A stretch of 19,258 bases of DNA from Streptomyces sp. NRRL S-87 (GTDB taxonomy: Bacteria; Actinomycetota; Actinomycetes; Streptomycetales; Streptomycetaceae). The first letter of the stretch is position 1; each line of letters opens with the position of its first letter. The translations under genes and the position numbers were made by a program. The stretch covers positions 1 to 19,258 of the forward strand of contig NZ_JOGB01000089.1 of assembly GCF_000719335.1 (NCBI RefSeq), given 5' to 3'. Under the pieces are notes generated by a model, which saw only the letters and a program-made list of their open reading frames with translations, searched no databases and was not told where the DNA came from. Positions 7,586-18,890 of the stretch are shown one piece after another.

Positions 7586-7744
7586 TCGAACGTGCGCGCA
7601 CTCGAACGGGTGAGGGTCTGTACGGCCGTTGGCCGAAGTGTGCCCGGACGAGTGGATACCGGCCGTCGGGGCCACGACTCCCGCGCCCGTGTGCCACGCT
7701 GGCCGCGTACATGGGTCGGAATGTGTCGTTCGGGGGCTTCCGCG

Positions 7745-9730
7745 ATGAGTGGTGACGGCGGGCGGGCAGAGTCGTTCGGCGGTGCCGGAGCCCCGGACGC
7801 CGTCGCGGCCCCCGTCGACGACGCGGTGCCCGGGGGGCTCCCCGCCCGTCAGGTACCGGCCCAGCGCGGCGGCGGCAGCGGCGCGGGCGCCGCGGAACTC
7901 CCGCCTTCCGACGGTGACCTGATCGCCCGTGTGCGGGCCGGCGACGACGGCGCGTACGAGGACCTGTACCGCCGGCACGCCGCCGCGGTGCGCCGGTACG
8001 CGCGTACCTGCTGCCGGGACGCCGACACCGCCGACGACCTCACGGCCGAGGTGTTCGCCCGTACCCTCCAGGCGGTGCGCGGCGGGGCCGGTCCGGACCA
8101 GGCGGTCCGCGCGTACCTGCTCACCACCGTGCGGCGGGTGGCGGCGGCGTGGACCAGGACCGCCCGGCGCGAGCAGCTCGTCGAGGACTTCGCGCTCTTC
8201 GCGGAGCAGGCCGCCGCGGCCCGCGGTCCGGCCGCTCCGGTCGGCGGGGCGGCCTCCGCCGACGCGCTCGGGCTCGGTGCGGACGCACGGGCCATGCACG
8301 AGGCCGAGCAGACGCTCGCCATGCGGGCGTTCCGGAGCCTGCCCGAGCGGTGGCAGGCGGTGTTGTGGCACACGACCGTGGAGGAGGCCTCGCCGAGCGC
8401 GATCGCCCCGCTGTTCGGCCTCACCCCCAACGCCACGGCCGTCCTGGCCAGCCGGGCCCGGGAAGGGCTCAAGCAGGCCTACCTGCAGGCGCACGTGAGC
8501 TCCGCGCTCACCGCGGGCGGCGACTGCGCACGGTACGCCGACCGGCTCGGCGCGTACGCGCGCGGGGGCCTGCGGATGCGGGCGGAGCGGGGGCTGCGCA
8601 AGCACCTGGAGGAGTGCGCGCGCTGCCGGATCGCGGCGGGCGAGCTGAAGGACGTCAACGCGGGCATCCCCGCGCTGCTGCCGGTCGCGGTCATCGGGTG
8701 GTTCGCCGCCGGGTACGCGGTGAAGGCGGCCGGTGCCGTGGCCGGTGGGGCGGCGGGCGCCGCCGGGGCCGGGGCGGCGGCCGCGGCGACGGGCGCCGGG
8801 ACGGGGGCGGGGGGCGCCGCCGGGGCCTCGGCCTCGGCCGGGGGTGCGGGCGCCGGCGGATCGGGGGCGGGGGCCGCCGCGGTCTCCGAGGGCCTCGGGC
8901 TGCCGGCCAAGGCCGCGATCGCGGCGGGGCTCGCGGTGGCCACGGCGGCGGGAGTGGTGTTCGCCCTCACCGGTGACGACCCCGAGCCGCGGGCGACGGC
9001 GCGGCCGGCGCCGAGCGTGGCGCCCGCGGCGCCGGTGGCGGAGACCCCGGAGCCGGAGCGGCCCACGCCCGCCGTGGTGCCGCGGGCGGTCGTGCCGGCG
9101 GCGGAGCGGTCCGCGCCGGCCCCGCGCCGGTCGGCGCCCGCGCCGCGGGTCACGCCGGCCTCCCCGGAGCCCGAGCCCTCGCCGCGGACGTCGCGTCCCG
9201 CGGCGCGGCCGACGCCTCCCGAGCCGACGCCGACGCCGACGCCGAGCCTGCGCCCCAGCCCGAGCCCGAGCCCGACGAGGCCGCCGACGACGTCCGTGCG
9301 GGCGTACCGGCTCGCGGCGCTGCGGCAGTCGGTGTTCGGCGACCACACCGGGCCGGAGATCGACACCCTGCGCAGCAGCTGGGTGTGGCAGCGGTGGGGG
9401 GTGCGGATCGCGGACCGGTGGTACGCGAACGGGGTCACCGTGCACGCCGGGTCGGCCGTCACGATCGACCTGAACCGGTCCTGCGACGCCTTCTCCGCGC
9501 GGGTGGGGGTCGACGGGCTGTCGGCGGGGCCGGGGGCGCTGCGGTTCTCCGTCTGGGCGGACGGGGCGCGGCTGTGGCGCGGGCCGGCGCTGGCGGTGGG
9601 TGATCCGGCCGTGCCGGTGCGGGTGGGGGTGGGCGGGGCCCGGAGACTGCGGCTCGTCGTCGAGCGGGAGTCCGGCCCCGGCGCGGTCCTCCTCGGCGAC
9701 TGGGCCCAGGCCGTCATCACCTGCCGCTGA
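7745..9730 (+). CDS. ECF-type sigma factor fused to anti-sigma-like, membrane and NPCBM-like domains
   Basis: The protein has 661 aa from ATG 7745 (CGGGGG 8 nt upstream), far longer than an ordinary ECF sigma (~180-200 aa). Residues 57-140 are sigma region 2 (DLIARVRAGDDGAYEDLYRR; DDLTAEVFARTLQAV) and 195-247 region 4 (LPERWQAVLWHTTVEE...). Then come a zinc-finger anti-sigma-like element with C261 and H287-x3-C291-x2-C294, a hydrophobic segment 308-328, a Gly/Ala linker, a hydrophobic segment 388-408, and a Pro/Thr/Ser-rich linker (412-517). The C-terminal 518-661 domain (YRLAALRQSVFGDHTGPEID...) resembles NPCBM/NEW2 sugar-binding modules. Related actinobacterial ECF groups with built-in C-terminal control are known (ECF52-like, from memory). 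A surface or sugar signal may release or activate the sigma part. With two membrane passes the last domain would be cytoplasmic, with one it would be outside; topology is unresolved. No separate anti-sigma gene is adjacent. Confidence 0.88.
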   Translation: MSGDGGRAESFGGAGAPDAVAAPVDDAVPGGLPARQVPAQRGGGSGAGAAELPPSDGDLIARVRAGDDGAYEDLYRRHAAAVRRYARTCCRDADTADDLTAEVFARTLQAVRGGAGPDQAVRAYLLTTVRRVAAAWTRTARREQLVEDFALFAEQAAAARGPAAPVGGAASADALGLGADARAMHEAEQTLAMRAFRSLPERWQAVLWHTTVEEASPSAIAPLFGLTPNATAVLASRAREGLKQAYLQAHVSSALTAGGDCARYADRLGAYARGGLRMRAERGLRKHLEECARCRIAAGELKDVNAGIPALLPVAVIGWFAAGYAVKAAGAVAGGAAGAAGAGAAAAATGAGTGAGGAAGASASAGGAGAGGSGAGAAAVSEGLGLPAKAAIAAGLAVATAAGVVFALTGDDPEPRATARPAPSVAPAAPVAETPEPERPTPAVVPRAVVPAAERSAPAPRRSAPAPRVTPASPEPEPSPRTSRPAARPTPPEPTPTPTPSLRPSPSPSPTRPPTTSVRAYRLAALRQSVFGDHTGPEIDTLRSSWVWQRWGVRIADRWYANGVTVHAGSAVTIDLNRSCDAFSARVGVDGLSAGPGALRFSVWADGARLWRGPALAVGDPAVPVRVGVGGARRLRLVVERESGPGAVLLGDWAQAVITCR

Positions 9731-10225: not shown

Positions 10226-12340
10226 TCAGAGGGCGGGGCGGGGGACCGAGGGGACGGCGCGGCGGCGGGGGGTGGAGGTGCCCGTCCAGCACGTGCCGCG
10301 GCGGGCCAGGAGCCGGCGGAGCCAGAGTTCCAGGGAGACGAGGTCGGCCAGGCCGTCGAGGGGGACGGGGGAGCCGGCGGCGGCGGCGACCACGGCCTCC
10401 TGGACGACGCGGGCCTCGATCAGGCCGGCGTCGGCGAGGAGCGGGGCCTCGAAGAGGTCCAGCAGGGCCTCCTGGGCGAGCCGCAGCCCCACCCGCGCCG
10501 AGGCGCCCTCCGGCGTGACGGCCCCCCAGCCCGGCGGGAGCTCGCGCACACCCGTACCGGCCAGCACGGTCCGCAGCACCGCGGCCCGGGCCCCCGGCTG
10601 CACCCGCAGCGACTCGGGCAGCGCGCGGGCGGCCCGTACCACCTGGTTGTCGAGGAACGGCGCGTGCAGCCGCTGGCTCCGCACCTCCGCGGCCTGTTCG
10701 AAGACGCGGTGGTCGGCCGCGTACCGGGCCAGGGCCGCCCGGGCCCGGGCCTCCCCCGGCCGGAGGGAGAGCGGCGGCCGGCCGGCCGCCGCCTCGAGTC
10801 TGATCGACACCTCCGCGAGCGCCTCGCCGGTGAGCCAGCGGGCCGCCGGCCCCGGCCGGGACCAGGCCAGCGCGGCCAGGGAGGACGCCACCGCCCCGGT
10901 GGGCTCGTCGGCGTCCACGCGGTGGCCGCGCAGCCGGGCGGCCGCGTCCCGCAGGCCGGACATGTAGGAGGTGCGGGAGAGCCGCCGCGCCGCCAGGTAG
11001 ACGGTCACCGGGACCGCCAGCGAGGGGCCTTCGGCCCGGGCCAGGGCGGCCACCGGCTTGACCAGGTGGCGCCGCTGCCGGTCCATCAGGAGGTCGGCCA
11101 GCCGCGCCGGATGGGCGTCGAGGACCTGGCGGGCGCCGTGCCCGGTGAAGTGGTCGGCGCTGCCGGCCGCGAGCCGCCGCCGGTGCCGGGCGGCCGTGAC
11201 CAGGGACGGGCCGGGTTCGTCGGTGAGCGGGCCCTCGAGGTCGGCGTACGGCAGCGCCTCCTCGCCCGCCGCGACGACGACGTGGTGCAGCCGGGGGTCG
11301 GCGGCGATGGCCCTGGCCCGCTCCAGCTCGGCCTCCCGGCCCCGGGGCGCGGCCAGGTCGTTGAAGGTGACGGCCAGCAGCCGCTCGCCGGCACCCGCAC
11401 CGTGCCCGAGGACGGTCCCGGGCACCCCCGGCAGGCCCGCGGCCAGCAGCGCGAGGGTGGCGGAGGCGCTGCCCCCGGAGAGGTCGGCGCCGATGCCGGG
11501 CGCGGGTCCGCCGCGGGCCGCGCGCCGGTCGGCGGGCCCCATGCCGGGGACGGGCCCCGGGTCGTACGGGAGCGTGTCCGGAGCGTGCCGGGGCGCCGTC
11601 AGCCGGGCCCGTACGGCGCCCACGAGGGCCTCCCGCACGCCCTCCACCGCGTGTTCGGGGTCGGCCGTCGGCGCGGCCACGGCCAGCGAGGCCACCGGCT
11701 CGTACCCGGTGATCTCGCGCGAACCCTCGCGCAGGATCAGGGCGTGGCCGGGCGGGATCCGCCGCACGCCGGTGTACGGCGTGCCGTCGCCGAGGGCCTC
11801 GGGGCTGTCGGGGCAGGCCAGCAGGGCGGCGAGGTGGCCGATGTCGAGCTGGGCCTCGATGAGGTCGGCGAGCGGGAGGGCCGCCGTGGCGTACGCGGTG
11901 CCGTTGGCCCACGGGGTGTGGAAGACGGGCCGCGCGCCGGCGAGGTCGCCCACCACCGTGATCCGGCGGCCGGCCTGGACGACCGCGGTGTAGCTGCCGG
12001 GCCACGCGGTCAGGTGCCGCAGTGCGCCCCCGCGCGCCGCGTAGAGGCCGCGGCGCAGCTCGGCGTCGTCGGCGCCGCAGCAGCCGAGGACGGCGAGCCG
12101 CGTGAAGGGGTCGGCGGGGTCGGCGACGACGGTGCGGATCTCGTCCGGGCGCCAGTCCCCGACGGCCCAGAGCGGGTCGGGGTCGCCCCACAGGAGCTGT
12201 GCGCCGACGGGGTGGAGGGTGCGGGCGGCGTCCTCGCCCGCGTCGTCGGAGTCCGCGAACCCGCCCCGGACGGTGTCGGCGAGGCGGCCGGCCGTGCCGA
12301 AGCTTGCGGCGATACTGCTCCAGCCCACCAACCAGCGCAT
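10226..12340 (-). CDS. Asparagine-synthetase-like protein with degenerate active-site motifs
   Basis: The protein has 704 aa from ATG 12340, with GGAGG 6 nt upstream. The N-terminal ~200 residues resemble an Ntn glutaminase-like domain but begin Met-Arg-Trp, so the catalytic Cys2 of AsnB is absent. This is the case in lasso-peptide cyclases, which also lack glutaminase activity. The C-terminal part resembles the ATP-pyrophosphatase domain: PFLDNQVVRAARALPESLRV (561-580) matches the conserved AsnB/cyclase segment. However, the PP-loop SGGxDS is SGGSAS (288-293), losing its Asp, and the second motif, usually GxGxDE, is GHGARQ (400-405). ATP chemistry may therefore be altered or lost. No lasso precursor, RRE or leader-peptidase gene is adjacent. 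It may be a lasso-cyclase-like or pseudo-synthetase protein; the substrate is unknown. A perfect DnaA box lies 18 nt upstream of the start. Confidence 0.85.
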   Translation of the reverse strand: MRWLVGWSSIAASFGTAGRLADTVRGGFADSDDAGEDAARTLHPVGAQLLWGDPDPLWAVGDWRPDEIRTVVADPADPFTRLAVLGCCGADDAELRRGLYAARGGALRHLTAWPGSYTAVVQAGRRITVVGDLAGARPVFHTPWANGTAYATAALPLADLIEAQLDIGHLAALLACPDSPEALGDGTPYTGVRRIPPGHALILREGSREITGYEPVASLAVAAPTADPEHAVEGVREALVGAVRARLTAPRHAPDTLPYDPGPVPGMGPADRRAARGGPAPGIGADLSGGSASATLALLAAGLPGVPGTVLGHGAGAGERLLAVTFNDLAAPRGREAELERARAIAADPRLHHVVVAAGEEALPYADLEGPLTDEPGPSLVTAARHRRRLAAGSADHFTGHGARQVLDAHPARLADLLMDRQRRHLVKPVAALARAEGPSLAVPVTVYLAARRLSRTSYMSGLRDAAARLRGHRVDADEPTGAVASSLAALAWSRPGPAARWLTGEALAEVSIRLEAAAGRPPLSLRPGEARARAALARYAADHRVFEQAAEVRSQRLHAPFLDNQVVRAARALPESLRVQPGARAAVLRTVLAGTGVRELPPGWGAVTPEGASARVGLRLAQEALLDLFEAPLLADAGLIEARVVQEAVVAAAAGSPVPLDGLADLVSLELWLRRLLARRGTCWTGTSTPRRRAVPSVPRPAL

Positions 12341-12357
12341 CGACCGCCTCCACAGAC

Positions 12358-12366
12358 TGTGGACAA
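12358..12366 (-). promoter_or_regulatory. Perfect DnaA-box sequence upstream of the Asn-synthetase-like gene
   Basis: The minus strand reads TTGTCCACA, ending 17 nt before the start codon and just upstream of the GGAGG ribosome-binding site. It overlaps a CCACA-gac-TGTGG palindrome (12350-12362). DnaA binding here could affect transcription, but a single box could also be chance. Confidence 0.45.
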
Positions 12367-12852
12367 GTTCGGGTCCATGCTGCCACGAGACAGGCGTGCG
12401 AGAGGTGTGAAGGGGGGCGCACATGCAAACGAACACGCCCCGGCCGCGCGGTATTTGGCGATCCGCACCGACCGTTCCATAGGCCGGATTCGGCCATTCT
12501 TCGCCCGGCCGTTTCCCTGCCGCTCCCCCACCGCTTCCCCGTCGTTTCCGTGCCGGACGAGGACGAACGGGACGCAAGGGGCACGTGAGGCGCGAGGTGC
12601 GCGGCCCGGGAGGCGCGGTCCGCCCCCCGGACCGGTCCGCCGCCCGCGGGGATTGAGGCGGCGGTGTCCCCCGGCCCGCCGGTTCCACGCAGCGGGCCGA
12701 CCCACGCACCCCACATGGAAACGTCCGGTCGGGGGACGGGGCAGAGCGCACGTGCGGGCGCACGGCCACACAACAGGAGCACGCCACCCCGGGCCACCCC
12801 CCTCCCCGACCGTGTGTACGGACAACAATCCCGCCATACGACAGAAGGGCCC
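12367..12852. other. Long divergent intergenic region with little coding signal
   Basis: The ~600 bp between the Asn-synthetase-like gene and the orf1590 homologue is lower in G+C in places (12450-12560) and lacks third-position GC bias in any frame. Apart from a possible 19-codon ORF, the DnaA box and the orf1590 promoter, nothing recognisable was found. Its length suggests regulatory sites for the two divergent genes. Confidence 0.6.
12423..12482 (+). CDS. Candidate 19-aa small ORF with strong ribosome-binding site
   Basis: ATG 12423 is preceded by GAAGGGGGG at 5-nt spacing, and the frame reads MQTNTPRPRGIWRSAPTVP then TAG. The Shine-Dalgarno is better than those of most genes here, but the ORF is very short, codon bias cannot be judged, and no family is recognised. 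It could be a leader peptide, a small protein, or chance. It is divergent to the Asn-synthetase-like gene and upstream of the orf1590 homologue. Confidence 0.25.
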   Translation: MQTNTPRPRGIWRSAPTVP

Positions 12853-12938: not shown

Positions 12939-14561
12939 ATGTCCAGGGAGCTCCGCGAGCCGAACGAGAAGCTCGGCGCCGTCCTCGCCCTCGCGGGCAT
13001 CAGCAACGCGGGCCTCGCGCGGCGGGTCAACGACCTCGGCGCGCAGCGCGGTCTGACGCTTCGCTACGACAAGACCTCGGTGGCCCGCTGGGTCTCCAAG
13101 GGGATGGTCCCGCAGGGCGCGGCCCCGCACCTGATCGCAGCCGCGATCGGCGCGAAGCTGGGCCGCCCGGTGCCGCTGCACGAGATCGGACTGGCCGACG
13201 CGGACCCGGCCCCGGAGGTCGGACTGGCCTTCCCGCGCGACGTGGGGGCGGCGGTGCGCTCGGCGACCGAGCTGTACCGGCTGGACCTGGCGGGGCGCCG
13301 CGGGGGTGGCGGGATCTGGCAGTCGCTGGCGGGGTCGTTCGCCGTGTCGGCGTACGCGACGCCGGCGTCGCGGTGGCTGATAACCCCGGCGGACAGCTCG
13401 GTGGCCCGGGAGGCGCCGGCTCCGTCCACCGCCGCCGAGCCCCCGAAGGACGGCGGGTCCGCGGCGGGGCCGGGCGGGCCGGTACCGGGAGCGGGCGGCG
13501 CCCCCGTACAGGGCACCGGCGGCGCCCAGGCCCACGCCGGTGCGGGCGGGCCCGTACCCGTACCGGCCCAGGCGGGCCCGGGCCGGGTGCGGTCCGGGTC
13601 GGCGGCGCGGGCCGCCGGGGCGCCCGTACCGGAGGCCTCGCCGCAGCGGGTGGGGCACAGCGACGTGGCCAAGCTGCGCGAGGCGGCCGAGGACGCCCGG
13701 CGCTGGGACTCCAAGTACGGCGGCGGGGACTGGCGTTCGTCGATGGTCCCGGAGTGCCTGCGGGTGGACGCGGCGCCGCTGCTGCTGGGCTCCTACTCGG
13801 ACGAGGTCGGCCGGGCCCTGTTCGGCGCGACGGCGGAACTGACCCGGCTGGCCGGGTGGATGGCCTTCGACACCGGCCAGCAGGAGGCCGCGCAGCGCTA
13901 CTACATCCAGGCGCTGCGGCTCGCGCGGGCGGCGGCGGACGTCCCGCTCGGCGGGTACGTCCTGGCCTCCATGTCCCTGCAGGCCACATACCGGGACTTC
14001 CCCGACGAGGGCGTGGACCTCGCGCAGGCCGCCATCGAACGCAACCGCGGTCTGGCCACCTCCCGCACCATGAGCTTCTTCCGGCTGGTCGAGGCGCGCG
14101 CGCACGCGAAGGCCGGCGACTCGGCGGCCGCGGGCGCCGCGCTGCGGGCGGCCGAGGGCTGGCTGGAGCGCTCGCGCGAGGGCGACCACGACCCGTCGTG
14201 GCTGGGCTTCTACTCGTACGACCGCTTCGCGGCGGACGCGGCGGAGTGCTACCGCGACCTGAAACTGCCGCGCCAGGCACGACGGTTCACCGAGCAGGCG
14301 CTGTCGCGCCCGACGGAGGAGTACGTCCGCTCGCACGGTTTACGGCTGGTCGTGAGCGCCGTCGCGGAGCTGGAGTCCGGGAACCTCGACGCGGCGTGCG
14401 CGCAGGGCGCGCGGGCCGTGGAGGTGGCCGGGCGGATCTCGTCCGCGCGCACCACCGAGTACGTGCGGGACCTCCTGCACCGCCTGGAGCCGTACGGGGA
14501 CGAACCCCGGGTCGCCGAACTGCGCGAGCGGGCCCGGCCGCTGCTGGTGGCGCCGGCGTAG
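12939..14561 (+). CDS. Sporulation-associated HTH/TPR protein (orf1590 / NsdA-like family)
   Basis: The protein has 540 aa from ATG 12939 (GAGGGG 6-7 nt upstream). Residues 10-60 form an HTH-like segment ([20 protein letters not shown]... [11 protein letters not shown]). A Pro/Gly/Ala-rich linker (155-235) follows, then helical TPR-like repeats to the end (about 295-535), including [20 protein letters not shown] and [11 protein letters not shown]. It resembles S. griseus ORF1590, whose gene gives a full-length protein and a shorter one lacking the HTH, and the TPR regulator NsdA. Both affect differentiation. Met56 (ATG 13104) is a candidate second start. Leu468 is encoded by TTA (14340-14342), the rare codon read by the developmental tRNA BldA, so translation probably depends on bldA. 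It lies upstream of, and on the same strand as, the LhgO-trmB-prsW group but is separated by 251 bp. The name is by resemblance. Confidence 0.85.
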
Positions 14562-16837: not shown

Positions 16838-17791
16838 GTGTTCCGGGTCCTGTCTCGTGCGTCCATCGGGCTGCTCGCGGCCGCCGGAGTGCTGATCCTC
16901 GAACTCGTTCGGGAGCAGACCGGCACCCAGGGGTTCCTCGTCGGCCTCGGTCTCGCCGTCCTGCCGGTGCCACCGCTGATGGCGGTGTTCCACTGGCTCG
17001 GGCGGACGCAGCCGGGGGGCGGCGTCTGGCCGCAGCACCTGTTCGCCTTCGTCTGGGGGGCCTGCGCCGCGGCGCTGATCGCGATAGTGGCGAACAGCTT
17101 CGCGACCCGGTGGATATCCGCGGCGGCCGACCCGGCGGAGGCCGACCTGCTGGGCTCCGTCGTGATCGCCCCGGTGGTGGAGGAGTTCGCGAAGGCGGCC
17201 GCGCTGCTGCTGGTGTTCCTCTTCCGGGGGCGGGAGTTCAGAGGGGTCGCTGACGGGATCGTGGTGGCAGGGTTCACCGCGACCGGCTTCGCGTTCACCG
17301 AGAACATCCTCTACCTCGGCAACGCCTTCGGGCAGGACCTGGGCACCGGTACGTCCGTCATGGGATCGGTGACCGCCGCGACCTTCTTCGTCCGGGCGGT
17401 GCTGTCGCCCTTCGCCCACCCGCTGTTCACCGTGTGGACCGGGCTCGGCTTCGGCTGGGCGGCGTACGCGTACGGGCCGGGGCGGGGGGCCGGGCCCGGA
17501 CGCCGGGCCCGGACCGGGCCGCCGGCGGCGGGGCTGGTGGCGGCCATGGCCGTGCACGCCCTGTGGAACAGCTCCTCCGAGTTCGGCGAGTACGGCTTCT
17601 ACGTCGTCTACGGGACCGTGATGGTGCCGGTCTTCGGTCTGCTGACGTGGCTGGCGGTGCGGACCCGGCGGTGGCCGGGGCCGCCCGTCCTCGTCCCCGC
17701 TATGCGTTCACACCACGGTCGGCCAGCCAGGCCAGCGGGTCCGCCGTCGCTCCGTCGATCCGCACTTCCAGGTGCAGATGGGGGCCGGTGA
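16838..17791 (+). CDS. PrsW-family intramembrane metalloprotease
   Basis: This 317-aa polytopic membrane protein has the three PrsW motifs: APVVEEFAKA (111-120), GFAFTENILYL (150-160) and the two histidine sites FAHPLFT (192-198) and AVHALWN (238-244). The Glu and His residues would bind a zinc ion in the membrane. In Bacillus subtilis PrsW cuts the anti-sigma factor RsiW, so a regulated membrane-protein cleavage role is plausible; the substrate here is unknown. Eight or nine hydrophobic segments are visible. The last 30 residues (288-317) are hydrophilic and lie antisense to the end of the M23 peptidase gene. The GTG start is supported by the leaderless -10 spacing. Confidence 0.9.
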   Translation: MFRVLSRASIGLLAAAGVLILELVREQTGTQGFLVGLGLAVLPVPPLMAVFHWLGRTQPGGGVWPQHLFAFVWGACAAALIAIVANSFATRWISAAADPAEADLLGSVVIAPVVEEFAKAAALLLVFLFRGREFRGVADGIVVAGFTATGFAFTENILYLGNAFGQDLGTGTSVMGSVTAATFFVRAVLSPFAHPLFTVWTGLGFGWAAYAYGPGRGAGPGRRARTGPPAAGLVAAMAVHALWNSSSEFGEYGFYVVYGTVMVPVFGLLTWLAVRTRRWPGPPVLVPAMRSHHGRPARPAGPPSLRRSALPGADGGR

Positions 17792-18740
17792 CGTTGCCGG
17801 TGGCGCCGACCCGGCCGATGGTCTGACCGGTCTCGACGGTGCCCGAGGCGACCGAGATCGAGGACAGGTGGCAGTACCAGAGCTCGGTGCCGTCCTGGAG
17901 CTTGAGGACGATGCGGTAGCCGTACGGGCCCGACCAGCCGGCGGAGGTGATGGTGCCGCCGTGCACGGCCTTGACCGGGGTGCCGGTCGGGGCGGCGAAG
18001 TCGAGGCCGGTGTGGTAGCCGGAGGACCACATCGAGCCGGCGTCGCCGTAGTGCGAGGTCAGCGTGTACGAGGAGGTGGGGAGGGTGTAGGCGCCGGCCA
18101 GCTTCGCGAGCCGCTCCTTCTCCGCCTTCTCCGCGGCGGCCTTCTCCTCGGCGGCCTTCTCGGCAGCGGCCTTGGCGGCGGCCTCGGCCTCGGCCTGCTT
18201 GCGGGCCGCCTCGCCCTCCGCCTTGGCCTTGGCCGCGGCGGCCTCCTCGGCGGCGCGCTGGGCGGCGGCCTTGGCCGCGGCGGCCGCGGCGTCGGCCTGC
18301 GACTCGGCCTGCTGGAGGATCCGGTTGCGCAGCGCCTCGCCGGCGTCGGTGCCCCGCGCGGCCTGGGCGGCGGTGACCCCGGCGCCGGTGAGCGGGGCCG
18401 CGACGGCGGTGGACCCGGGCTCGTCCGCGTCGCCGGTGAGCGCGTCGGGAAGGACGTCGGGCAGCTCGTCCGGGAGCAGGGAAGGTAGGGATATCGCGAC
18501 CGGGGGCTTGTCCTGCGCGGTGGCGATGCCGCCCGCGCCGACGGCGGCCATGATGCCGACGCCGAGGACGGTGGAGCTGCGGGCCAGGCCCTGGCGCTGC
18601 TTGACGACACGGTGGCGGCCGCCGACCGGGCGTACGGAGTCCTCGGTGGGGTTCCACTCGCCCCACGCGCCGGCGCCCTCGGGGGCGGCGGCGGCCGTGG
18701 AGGACGGGGGGATGTCGGCGGCAGGGCCGTTGGACGCCAC
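17700..18740 (-). CDS. M23-family peptidoglycan metallopeptidase with coiled coil
   Basis: This 346-aa protein has a GTG start at 18740 (AAGGAG about 8 nt upstream). It has a polar ~50-residue N-terminus, then a hydrophobic segment (56-75, ending AQD) acting as signal or membrane anchor. A Pro/Asp-rich spacer precedes an Ala/Glu/Lys coiled coil (142-215). The C-terminal LytM/M23 domain (222-346) has the zinc and catalytic residues H243 and D247 (HTGLDFA), H291 (YCHLSS) and H321/H323 (GPHLHLEV). It should cut peptide cross-links in the cell wall during growth, sporulation or germination. The coiled coil may hold or regulate the enzyme, as in EnvC/FtsX-type partners. Expression is controlled by the c-di-AMP riboswitch in the leader. 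The 3' end overlaps prsW on the other strand by 92 nt. Confidence 0.93.
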   Translation of the reverse strand: MASNGPAADIPPSSTAAAAPEGAGAWGEWNPTEDSVRPVGGRHRVVKQRQGLARSSTVLGVGIMAAVGAGGIATAQDKPPVAISLPSLLPDELPDVLPDALTGDADEPGSTAVAAPLTGAGVTAAQAARGTDAGEALRNRILQQAESQADAAAAAAKAAAQRAAEEAAAAKAKAEGEAARKQAEAEAAAKAAAEKAAEEKAAAEKAEKERLAKLAGAYTLPTSSYTLTSHYGDAGSMWSSGYHTGLDFAAPTGTPVKAVHGGTITSAGWSGPYGYRIVLKLQDGTELWYCHLSSISVASGTVETGQTIGRVGATGNVTGPHLHLEVRIDGATADPLAWLADRGVNA

Positions 18741-18756
18741 GGGGGCGCTCCTTTCC

Positions 18757-18890
18757 TTCCCTCTTCGCCTACCGGGTTAGCTGACGGGTTCGGAGCAGGA
18801 AGGTCTCCTACGGGCCGGCGGGCCCGATGCACCCCATGTTGGTGGTTCCCCGGTTCCCTCGCGGGATTCGGCGCGCACGCGCGCGGTGCC
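18757..18890 (-). promoter_or_regulatory. ydaO-type c-di-AMP riboswitch
   Basis: On the minus strand the leader of the M23 gene has the class hallmarks in order: GGGGAACCA (18851-18843), GGGGTGCATC (about 18836-18827), GAGACCTTCC (18807-18798) and CCGTCAGCTAACCCGGTAGGC (18787-18767, written in full as the key core). Then come a short purine-rich stretch and the ribosome-binding site. In Streptomyces this riboswitch is found before cell-wall hydrolase genes such as rpfA, where high c-di-AMP lowers expression. Whether it acts by termination or by blocking translation is not clear, as no obvious terminator lies between it and the GTG. Outer boundaries are approximate. Confidence 0.93.

What the first reader, a model, noticed from the sequence alone, without database searches (positions are those of the whole stretch)
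7745..9730. One polypeptide joining an ECF sigma factor, a zinc-finger anti-sigma-like element, membrane segments and an NPCBM-like domain
Sequence shows sigma regions 2 and 4, an H-x3-C-x2-C element, two hydrophobic segments, a ~100-residue Pro-rich linker and a C-terminal domain resembling NPCBM/NEW2 sugar-binding modules. Such fused ECFs are known as groups, but their signal and mode of sigma release are poorly understood. A PrsW-family protease gene ~7 kb away offers a speculative means of releasing the sigma domain.
Basis: partly seen in the sequence, partly recalled or inferred. Interest (0 to 1): 0.7.

Follow-up and report, generated by a model that had tools for sequence, protein, structure and literature searches.

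The report
Membrane-tethered sigma factor with sugar-binding domain
A Streptomyces gene makes one protein that joins a transcription-starting sigma factor to its own inhibitor, a membrane anchor and an outer sugar-binding domain; this is a known kind of protein, widespread in Streptomyces, and the new detail here is how it probably sits in the membrane and that one lineage has lost the sugar-binding part.

Summary
Window 7745-9730 (+) encodes a 661-aa ECF sigma factor fused to a zinc anti-sigma (ZAS) domain, two hydrophobic segments, a Pro-rich stalk and a C-terminal NPCBM/CBM51 domain. It is not new: it matches the published ECF52 group, studied as SCO4117 of S. coelicolor. A TetR gene lies upstream in 80 of 80 fetched loci, as atrA does there.

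What I add: (1) only the second hydrophobic segment probably crosses the membrane; the first sits where anti-sigma helix 4 should be and is as conserved as sigma4. (2) NPCBM is very likely outside: 301 of 301 domains have exactly two Cys. (3) One Streptomyces clade lost NPCBM but kept the rest. (4) Some relatives carry lectin or Ig-like outer domains on the same chassis. (5) PrsW is the genome's only copy, but its nearness looks like genus-wide synteny, and two genomes with anchored relatives show none.

Verdict: a new member of a known kind; proteolytic release is plausible but undemonstrated.

The parts
7642..7716 (+). Conserved upstream DNA: block 7642-7658 (CCCCGGA.GAGTGG-like) and block 7687-7716 (TGTG.CAC.CT.G.CCGGTG-like), a probable promoter/regulatory region of the gene
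   Evidence: Alignment of the window with 80 loci, two islands of well conserved columns in a poorly conserved intergenic stretch; function inferred
7745..9730 (+). ECF52-type fused sigma factor gene, 661 aa
   Evidence: conserved ATG; one match in the window genome and one each in 10 other same-genus genomes at E <= 1e-30 (misses mostly not listed)
7964..8170 (+). Sigma-70 region 2 (residues 74-142)
8321..8464 (+). Sigma-70 region 4 (residues 193-240)
8525..8629 (+). Zinc anti-sigma (ZAS) domain, C261-x25-H287-x3-C291-x2-C294
   Evidence: Pfam zf-HC2 6.3e-5; pattern in 343 of 343 proteins; weak PDB match to RslA, E 0.026
8660..8722 (+). Hydrophobic segment 1 (residues 306-326), proposed anti-sigma helix-4 / membrane-face element, probably not a membrane span
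   Evidence: 88% mean identity for 304-327 against 66% for the second segment; motif in 340 of 343 proteins; position after ZAS and charge data; inferred
8723..8899 (+). Ala/Gly-rich linker (residues 327-385), proposed cytoplasmic, length variable in orthologs
   Evidence: 36 to 111 residues between positions 327 and 389 over 62 proteins; basic bias in relatives
8900..8971 (+). Transmembrane segment (residues 386-409), proposed N-in/C-out
   Evidence: Insertion scan (constants recalled); basic before, acidic after, summed over 20 proteins
8975..9298 (+). Pro-rich stalk (residues 411-518), proposed to span the cell wall
   Evidence: 43% Pro, 74-128 residues over 62 proteins; wall-spanning role inferred
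9299..9727 (+). NPCBM/CBM51 domain (residues 519-661) with Cys pair C580/C660
6611..7498 (+). TetR-family gene in the atrA (SCO4118) position
   Evidence: TetR_N 3.5e-13; matched on the same strand within 2.7 kb upstream in 80 of 80 loci; identity as AtrA not tested by sequence
16838..17791 (+). PrsW-family intramembrane protease gene, candidate site-1 protease
   Evidence: PF13367 3.8e-50; only PrsW match in the genome; functional link not shown

Best explanation
This is the ECF52 sigma factor of this Streptomyces (ortholog of SCO4117 by architecture and position), a one-protein signal transducer. Shown by sequence or model: sigma2-sigma4, ZAS domain, conserved hydrophobic segment, A/G linker, TM-like segment, Pro-rich stalk, CBM51 domain. 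Inferred: the ZAS domain folds back on its own sigma domain. Hydrophobic segment 306-326 takes the place of anti-sigma helix 4 (against sigma2 and/or lodged in the inner membrane face) and keeps the sigma off RNA polymerase. Segment 386-409 is the only membrane crossing. The roughly 100-residue Pro-rich stalk carries a disulphide-closed CBM51 domain into or through the cell wall, where it binds a glycan. A change in that contact exposes the stalk or TM region to a site-1 protease and then to intramembrane cleavage. The freed cytoplasmic part loses or opens its ZAS domain and activates development and antibiotic genes, including its own gene. The protease is unknown; PrsW is one candidate.
For: Domains and folds. 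ECF52 definition and knockout phenotypes of SCO4117 (passages read). TetR gene upstream in 80 of 80 loci and Scr4115 sRNA in the window. All four zinc ligands in 343 of 343 proteins. Outer location of NPCBM: exactly two Cys in 301 of 301 domains; no Cys at the place of C580 in the five PDB CBM51 sequences aligned (the place of C660 is not covered there). N-in/C-out second segment: over 20 proteins (window, 8 from the plasmid collection, 11 from other genomes) the stretch between the segments holds 40 K+R against 11 D+E, and the 20 residues after segment 2 hold 17 against 45 (Fisher 6.9e-8, rows not independent). The stretch before segment 1, cytoplasmic by its fusion to sigma, is acidic (26 to 46), so segment 1 has the wrong polarity for an N-in span. 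Segment 1 is 88% identical on average, like sigma4 (88%) and ZAS (91%), whereas the TM is 66% and NPCBM 51%. In class I anti-sigma domains helix 4 after the zinc motif binds sigma2 (passages of PMC7406223), and RslA aligns, across a 4-residue gap, GVPALL to GIPALL after its zinc motif. A proteolysis model for ECF48/52/53, and IutY processed by Prc and RseP, are in PMC8999054 (passages).
Against: I saw no experiment on cleavage or topology of an ECF52 in the passages read. In S. coelicolor a strain expressing the sigma domain alone is still delayed in development and its gene rises only 1.3-fold, so the freed sigma domain does not behave as strongly active. Neither AF2 model fixes where segment 1 lies: both draw one helix running from the ZAS through it at low confidence. 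Within the 62 Streptomyces proteins the linker charge bias is weaker (125 K+R to 58 D+E, and 119 to 136 after the TM), and 5 of the 20 proteins have no basic residue in the linker at all; the acidic stretch before segment 1 also shows that the charge rule is not obeyed everywhere. Some distant relatives have a segment 1 as hydrophobic as a TM (L106-L108, L113). A clade without NPCBM keeps everything else, so sugar binding cannot be needed everywhere. In the model the last sigma4 helix (228-257) runs almost into the ZAS helix (260-273), so a protease that destroys the ZAS would have to stop sharply.
Confidence: 0.6

Rival explanations
1. Both hydrophobic segments (perhaps with the A/G-rich stretch as a third) cross the membrane; the protein is a two- or three-pass anchored sigma factor. 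With two passes the NPCBM would be cytoplasmic; with three it would be outside.
For: Segment 1 scores 0.50 and segment 2 -0.13 on an insertion scale (constants recalled); the A/G stretch scores 1.9-2.5 in many orthologs, though above 2.5 in the window, and is 82% identical on average; the review passage speaks of one to two TM helices for ECF48/52/53.
Against: Two passes conflict with the Cys pair of NPCBM and with basic residues before and acidic residues after segment 2. Three passes leave K327, invariant in the 62 aligned proteins (Gln in P0242 and P0244 of the CBM-less clade), outside. Segment 1 is far more conserved than a plain anchor.
Confidence: 0.25
2. The ZAS is an intracellular redox or zinc switch: oxidation or zinc loss opens it while the membrane part only positions the protein.
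For: C-x25-H-x3-C-x2-C in 343 of 343 proteins, the ligand spacing of redox-sensing RsrA (recalled); sigmaR/RsrA works by a disulphide (passage).
Against: PMC7406223 finds about half of membrane-bound anti-sigma domains zinc-binding and argues that the motif can be structural (passages); it would not explain the conserved stalk and outer domain.
Confidence: 0.12
3. PrsW, encoded 7.1 kb downstream, is the dedicated site-1 protease that frees this sigma factor, as in RsiW of Bacillus (recalled).
For: Only PrsW match in the genome; the same 11 same-genus genomes match both the sigma part and PrsW, on the same contig about 9-14 kb apart in 10 of 11; outside the genus PrsW is in 9 of 12 genomes with a relative against 53 of 125 without (Fisher p 0.037; the 125 assumes that the sample of 148 holds no further same-genus genome, since misses were mostly not listed).
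Against: PrsW sits behind TrmB in 28 of 29 loci that reach that far, so nearness is synteny; outside the genus only 1 of those 9 genomes keeps it near; two genomes with anchored relatives have no PrsW match (G027 96%, G042 85% complete); the counts ignore phylogeny.
Confidence: 0.15
4. The full-length protein works from the membrane without cleavage: ligand binding outside opens the ZAS by conformational change and the tethered sigma initiates transcription.
For: Conformational change is offered beside a proteolytic cascade by Pinto and Mascher 2016, as cited in PMC5826349 (passage); the sigma-only strain is only mildly active; the tight sigma4-ZAS join makes clean proteolytic removal awkward.
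Against: A flexible roughly 100-residue Pro-rich stalk and A/G linker should transmit force poorly (inference); fused IutY is activated by proteolysis (passage).
Confidence: 0.2

Closest known systems
SCO4117 of S. coelicolor (ECF52), PMC5826349
   Same: ECF sigma, pfam13490 zinc finger, TM region, Pro-rich stretch, smart00776 carbohydrate-binding module; atrA upstream; only ECF52 in its genome (passages). The window gene matches each of these as far as tested.
   Different: SCO4117's own sequence was not fetched, so identity is not given. The passages read treat the TM region as one domain and do not discuss segment 1 or the Cys pair. They name S. avermitilis as an exception to the atrA neighbourhood.
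S. venezuelae RS19240 (listed as r2, r4, NPCBM), PMC11256431
   Same: Same domain combination in a table of sigma genes (passage).
   Different: Not named ECF52 there; only its expression change in an ECF deletion mutant is listed.
Fused ECFs of Streptomyces, Micrococcaceae and Nonomuraea records in the plasmid collection (L081-L088)
   Same: Sigma, ZAS ligands, segment 1, linker, TM-like segment and long C-terminal part.
   Different: About 32-40% identical over the inner part; ricin-B lectin domains in L081, L084, L086, a weak Ig-like match below cut-off in L087, none named in L082 and L083 (L085 and L088 not scanned); no NPCBM in the six scanned.
IutY of Pseudomonas putida (ECF243)
   Same: Sigma and anti-sigma fused in one membrane protein (passage).
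   Different: Siderophore signalling; released by Prc and RseP.
RslA/SigL (3hug) and RsiW/SigW (5wuq) anti-sigma pairs
   Same: Zinc-type class I anti-sigma domain on an ECF sigma; RslA aligns through the segment-1 start.
   Different: Two separate proteins; RsiW is cut by PrsW (recalled).
CBM51 of C. perfringens ZmpB and GH95 (7jrl, 2vmg)
   Different: Parts of glycan-acting enzymes; about 21-22% identity; no Cys at the C580 position in the aligned sequences.

Membership tests
ECF52 sigma factors | ECF sigma domain with regions 2 and 4 | tested here: met
   TIGR02937 above cut-off; Pfam r2; r4 weak in Pfam but matched in the model
ECF52 sigma factors | Zinc finger (pfam13490) C-terminal to sigma4 | tested here: met
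   zf-HC2 261-295, 23.4 against 22.2 bits
ECF52 sigma factors | Transmembrane region (variable number of helices) | tested here: met
   Prediction only: two hydrophobic segments, one probable span
ECF52 sigma factors | Long Pro-rich extension with carbohydrate-binding domain | tested here: met
   43% Pro stalk; NPCBM 3.1e-24
ECF52 sigma factors | Restricted to Actinobacteria | tested here: inconclusive
   148 genomes of the class of the window were sampled; the collection-wide scan kept only the best 80 of 460 places, titled Streptomyces or, once, Actinobacteria bacterium
ECF52 sigma factors | Gene downstream of atrA | tested here: met
   TetR gene 246 bp upstream in the window, within 2.7 kb upstream on the same strand in 80 of 80 loci; that it is AtrA was not tested by sequence
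ECF52 sigma factors | Match to the published ECF52 group model | not testable with these tools
   The ECF classification models are not among the libraries
CBM51/NPCBM | Sequence profile and beta-sandwich fold | tested here: met
CBM51/NPCBM | Sugar binding | not testable with these tools
   No ligand data; binding residues were not compared
Class I zinc anti-sigma domain (ZAS) | Hx3Cx2C plus upstream ligand | tested here: met
   343 of 343 proteins
Class I zinc anti-sigma domain (ZAS) | Helix 4 that contacts sigma2 | tested here: inconclusive
   Segment 1 lies in that place; models of low confidence there
PrsW/site-2 protease substrates | Cleavage by PrsW or a site-2 protease | not testable with these tools
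   Only co-occurrence and position of PrsW could be looked at; site-2 proteases were not searched

The most novel reading that the evidence does not exclude
The fused ECF family is a modular single-pass receptor: a constant inner unit (sigma, ZAS and a cytoplasmic hydrophobic 'clasp' that replaces anti-sigma helix 4 and sits on the sigma or on the membrane face), one TM, a wall-spanning stalk, and an exchangeable outer sensor (CBM51, ricin-B lectin, Ig-like, or in one Streptomyces clade almost nothing). The clade that lost its CBM51 would then be a natural constitutive or re-signalled form of a regulator of development and antibiotic production.
Probability: 0.4. Interest if true: 0.5.

Novelty: new member of a known kind. 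Interest (0 to 1): 0.32.

Why it matters
SCO4117, the studied ECF52 protein, affects development and antibiotic production in S. coelicolor, yet the signal, topology and release step are given as unknown or proposed in the passages read. The topology argument, the paired cysteines and the CBM-less clade turn these into simple tests: which segment crosses the membrane, whether the outer domain senses a wall glycan, and what a lineage does without it. The window gene itself is an ordinary ortholog.

Tried and rejected
Rewiring idea: the CBM-less clade has a changed region 4.2, which suggested that loss of the sensor went with a change of promoter. Rejected: the NPCBM-bearing sister rows share the change, so it is older than the loss.

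Redox switch from the Cys ligand: kept only as a rival, since zinc motifs are common in membrane-bound anti-sigma factors.

AF2 for the position of segment 1: the full-length model and the 50-413 model both run one helix from the ZAS through it at low confidence; structure searches confirmed the sigma and CBM51 folds but say nothing on sigma-ZAS packing. I noticed no anti-sigma chain among the listed rows, which proves nothing. No distance between C580 and C660 was measured.

Upstream footprint: two conserved blocks, no clear ECF -35/-10 pair recognised by eye; not pursued.

CBM51 ligand residues: the literature search gave no usable list in view; not compared.

NPCBM losses outside the main clade: rows P0257, P0263, P0279 and P0304 also lack it, each alone in the tree (7 changes in all for the 13 rows without it). 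P0263 is named partial, P0304 ends in an Arg-rich frame; I treat all four as truncated or frameshifted without proof. 21 further rows were too short to tell.

Rows dropped: of 80 loci, 61 gave an intact full frame and were aligned; 19 were not (11 cut by a contig end, 5 with sigma and NPCBM in different frames, 3 with the sigma part in a frame without NPCBM). From I left out L089 (no sigma frame found), L116, L117 and the second L083 frame (short frames without a clear membrane part). The 343 proteins come from three lists capped at the best 120.

Reverse strand: long open frames lie opposite the gene, as expected at this GC content; I translated the opposite strand but did not scan it against families.

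Full report
Observation. The frame 7745-9730 on the + strand encodes 661 residues. Each base of its ATG is conserved in 90% or more of the window plus 80 aligned loci, although the frame itself opens earlier. Profile searches find sigma region 2, an ECF-wide profile over 70-245, a zf-HC2 zinc finger and an NPCBM domain. Region 4 is below the Pfam cut-off but is matched by the ECF-wide profile and by structure.

Conservation. 61 of 80 fetched loci hold an intact full-length gene; the other 19 are cut by contig ends or split in frame. Over these 61, mean identity to the window is 81% for sigma2, 88% for sigma4, 91% for the ZAS domain, 88% for hydrophobic segment 1, 82% for the following A/G stretch, 66% for segment 2, 41% for the stalk and 51% for NPCBM. 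The inner part is thus nearly fixed while the outer part drifts. Of 343 proteins with the sigma-ZAS part (window included, from capped lists), all keep C-x25-H-x3-C-x2-C and 340 keep the segment-1 motif. In a sample of 148 genomes of the class, 23 match the sigma-ZAS part at E <= 1e-30: the window genome and 10 others of its genus, one match each, and 12 outside the genus; 105 of the 125 genomes without a match were not listed, so I cannot say that no genus member lacks it.

Identity. This matches the ECF52 group: sigma domain, zinc finger, TM region, Pro-rich extension and carbohydrate-binding module, with SCO4117 of S. coelicolor the studied member, found downstream of atrA in the species analysed there except S. 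avermitilis (PMC5826349, passages read; PMC8999054, passages read). In the window a TetR gene ends 246 bp upstream, and one lies within 2.7 kb upstream on the same strand in 80 of 80 loci. The Streptomyces sRNA Scr4115 lies at 12600-12707; I take its name to refer to the SCO4115 region (inference). S. venezuelae RS19240 is listed in print with sigma r2, r4 and NPCBM (PMC11256431, passage). I did not have the SCO4117 sequence, so orthology rests on architecture and position.

Topology. Two hydrophobic segments need care: if both crossed the membrane, the NPCBM domain would be cytoplasmic. Three lines argue against that. First, the NPCBM domain has exactly two Cys in 301 of 301 proteins (294 in one strict pattern). 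In the model C580 begins strand 580-590 and C660 ends strand 650-660 (no distance measured). No Cys stands at the C580 place in the five PDB CBM51 sequences aligned. An exported disulphide is the natural reading. Second, in the window plus 19 diverse relatives, the stretch between the segments has 40 K+R and 11 D+E, and the 20 residues after segment 2 have 17 and 45, the signature of an N-in/C-out span for segment 2. The stretch before segment 1, cytoplasmic by its fusion to sigma, has 26 and 46, so segment 1 has the wrong polarity for an N-in span; it also shows that the charge rule is not obeyed everywhere. Five of the 20 linkers hold no basic residue, and in the 62 close proteins the bias is weaker (125 to 58 before, 119 to 136 after). 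Third, segment 1 follows the zinc motif where class I anti-sigma domains have helix 4, the sigma2-binding helix (PMC7406223, passages), and the RslA chain of 3hug aligns GVPALL to GIPALL there across a 4-residue gap, at a weak E of 0.026. I therefore favour one crossing, with segment 1 as a cytoplasmic clasp. A hairpin or a third span through the A/G stretch is not excluded. Both AF2 models are too uncertain there to decide, and the insertion scores use constants recalled from memory.

Release and PrsW. A proteolytic model for ECF48/52/53 is in print, without a protease for ECF52 in the passages read. PrsW of the window is the only match in the genome. The 11 same-genus genomes with the sigma gene all match PrsW, in 10 of 11 on the same contig about 9-14 kb apart. 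But PrsW follows TrmB in 28 of 29 loci that extend far enough, so its place is part of a conserved block. Outside the genus it occurs in 9 of 12 genomes with a relative and 53 of 125 without (p 0.037, no correction for descent, and assuming no unlisted same-genus genome in the sample). Only G115 of these nine keeps the two genes near, about 5 kb apart. G027 and G042 have anchored relatives (L105, L113) and no PrsW match; G146 also lacks PrsW, but its relative ends soon after the zinc motif. PrsW is a candidate, not a conclusion; site-2 proteases were not searched. The sigma-only strain of S. coelicolor is still delayed and raises its own gene only 1.3-fold, which any release model must explain.

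Verdict. The finding is real and well read, but it is a widespread and already described kind of Streptomyces protein. The gain is a sharper topology, the outer Cys pair, the varied outer domains and a natural CBM-less clade.

Noticed in passing
window 18751-18883 (-): c-di-AMP riboswitch (ydaO/yuaA, 99.5 bits) directly upstream of an M23 peptidase frame (17700-18740, -), whose end overlaps the end of the PrsW frame.
   Followed up: no
window 12600-12707 (-): Streptomyces sRNA Scr4115 (83.3 bits), overlapping the 5' part of the asparagine-synthase-like frame 10226-12787 (-); the true start of that gene may be further in.
   Followed up: no
window 1 and upstream; L008 1-2259: 54 of 80 loci end 6-9 kb upstream of this gene and the window starts at base 1 of its contig; in S. 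scabiei an rRNA operon lies there, which would explain the assembly breaks.
   Followed up: yes
L031, L039, L044, L072, L078: Sigma part and NPCBM part lie in different frames; S. clavuligerus is reported to have a stop between the two, perhaps a sequence error in the Pro-rich region. Probably assembly errors in the repeats, but a real split was not excluded.
   Followed up: partly
window 12939-14561 (+): 540-aa frame without any Pfam match whose best segment is 88-100% identical in 63 of the 64 loci where it was found (62% in L072); one of the most conserved genes of the region.
   Followed up: no
window 7642-7716: Two strongly conserved DNA blocks between the TetR gene and the sigma gene, a likely regulatory region.
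   Followed up: partly
L083 2495-3214: On a Paenarthrobacter plasmid a second sigma-ZAS gene without membrane part (stop soon after the zinc motif) sits next to a full fused one.
   Followed up: no
G000 C13 and C56 (L090, L092): The window genome has two further NPCBM matches (5.2e-44 and 9.3e-6) in other proteins.
   Followed up: no
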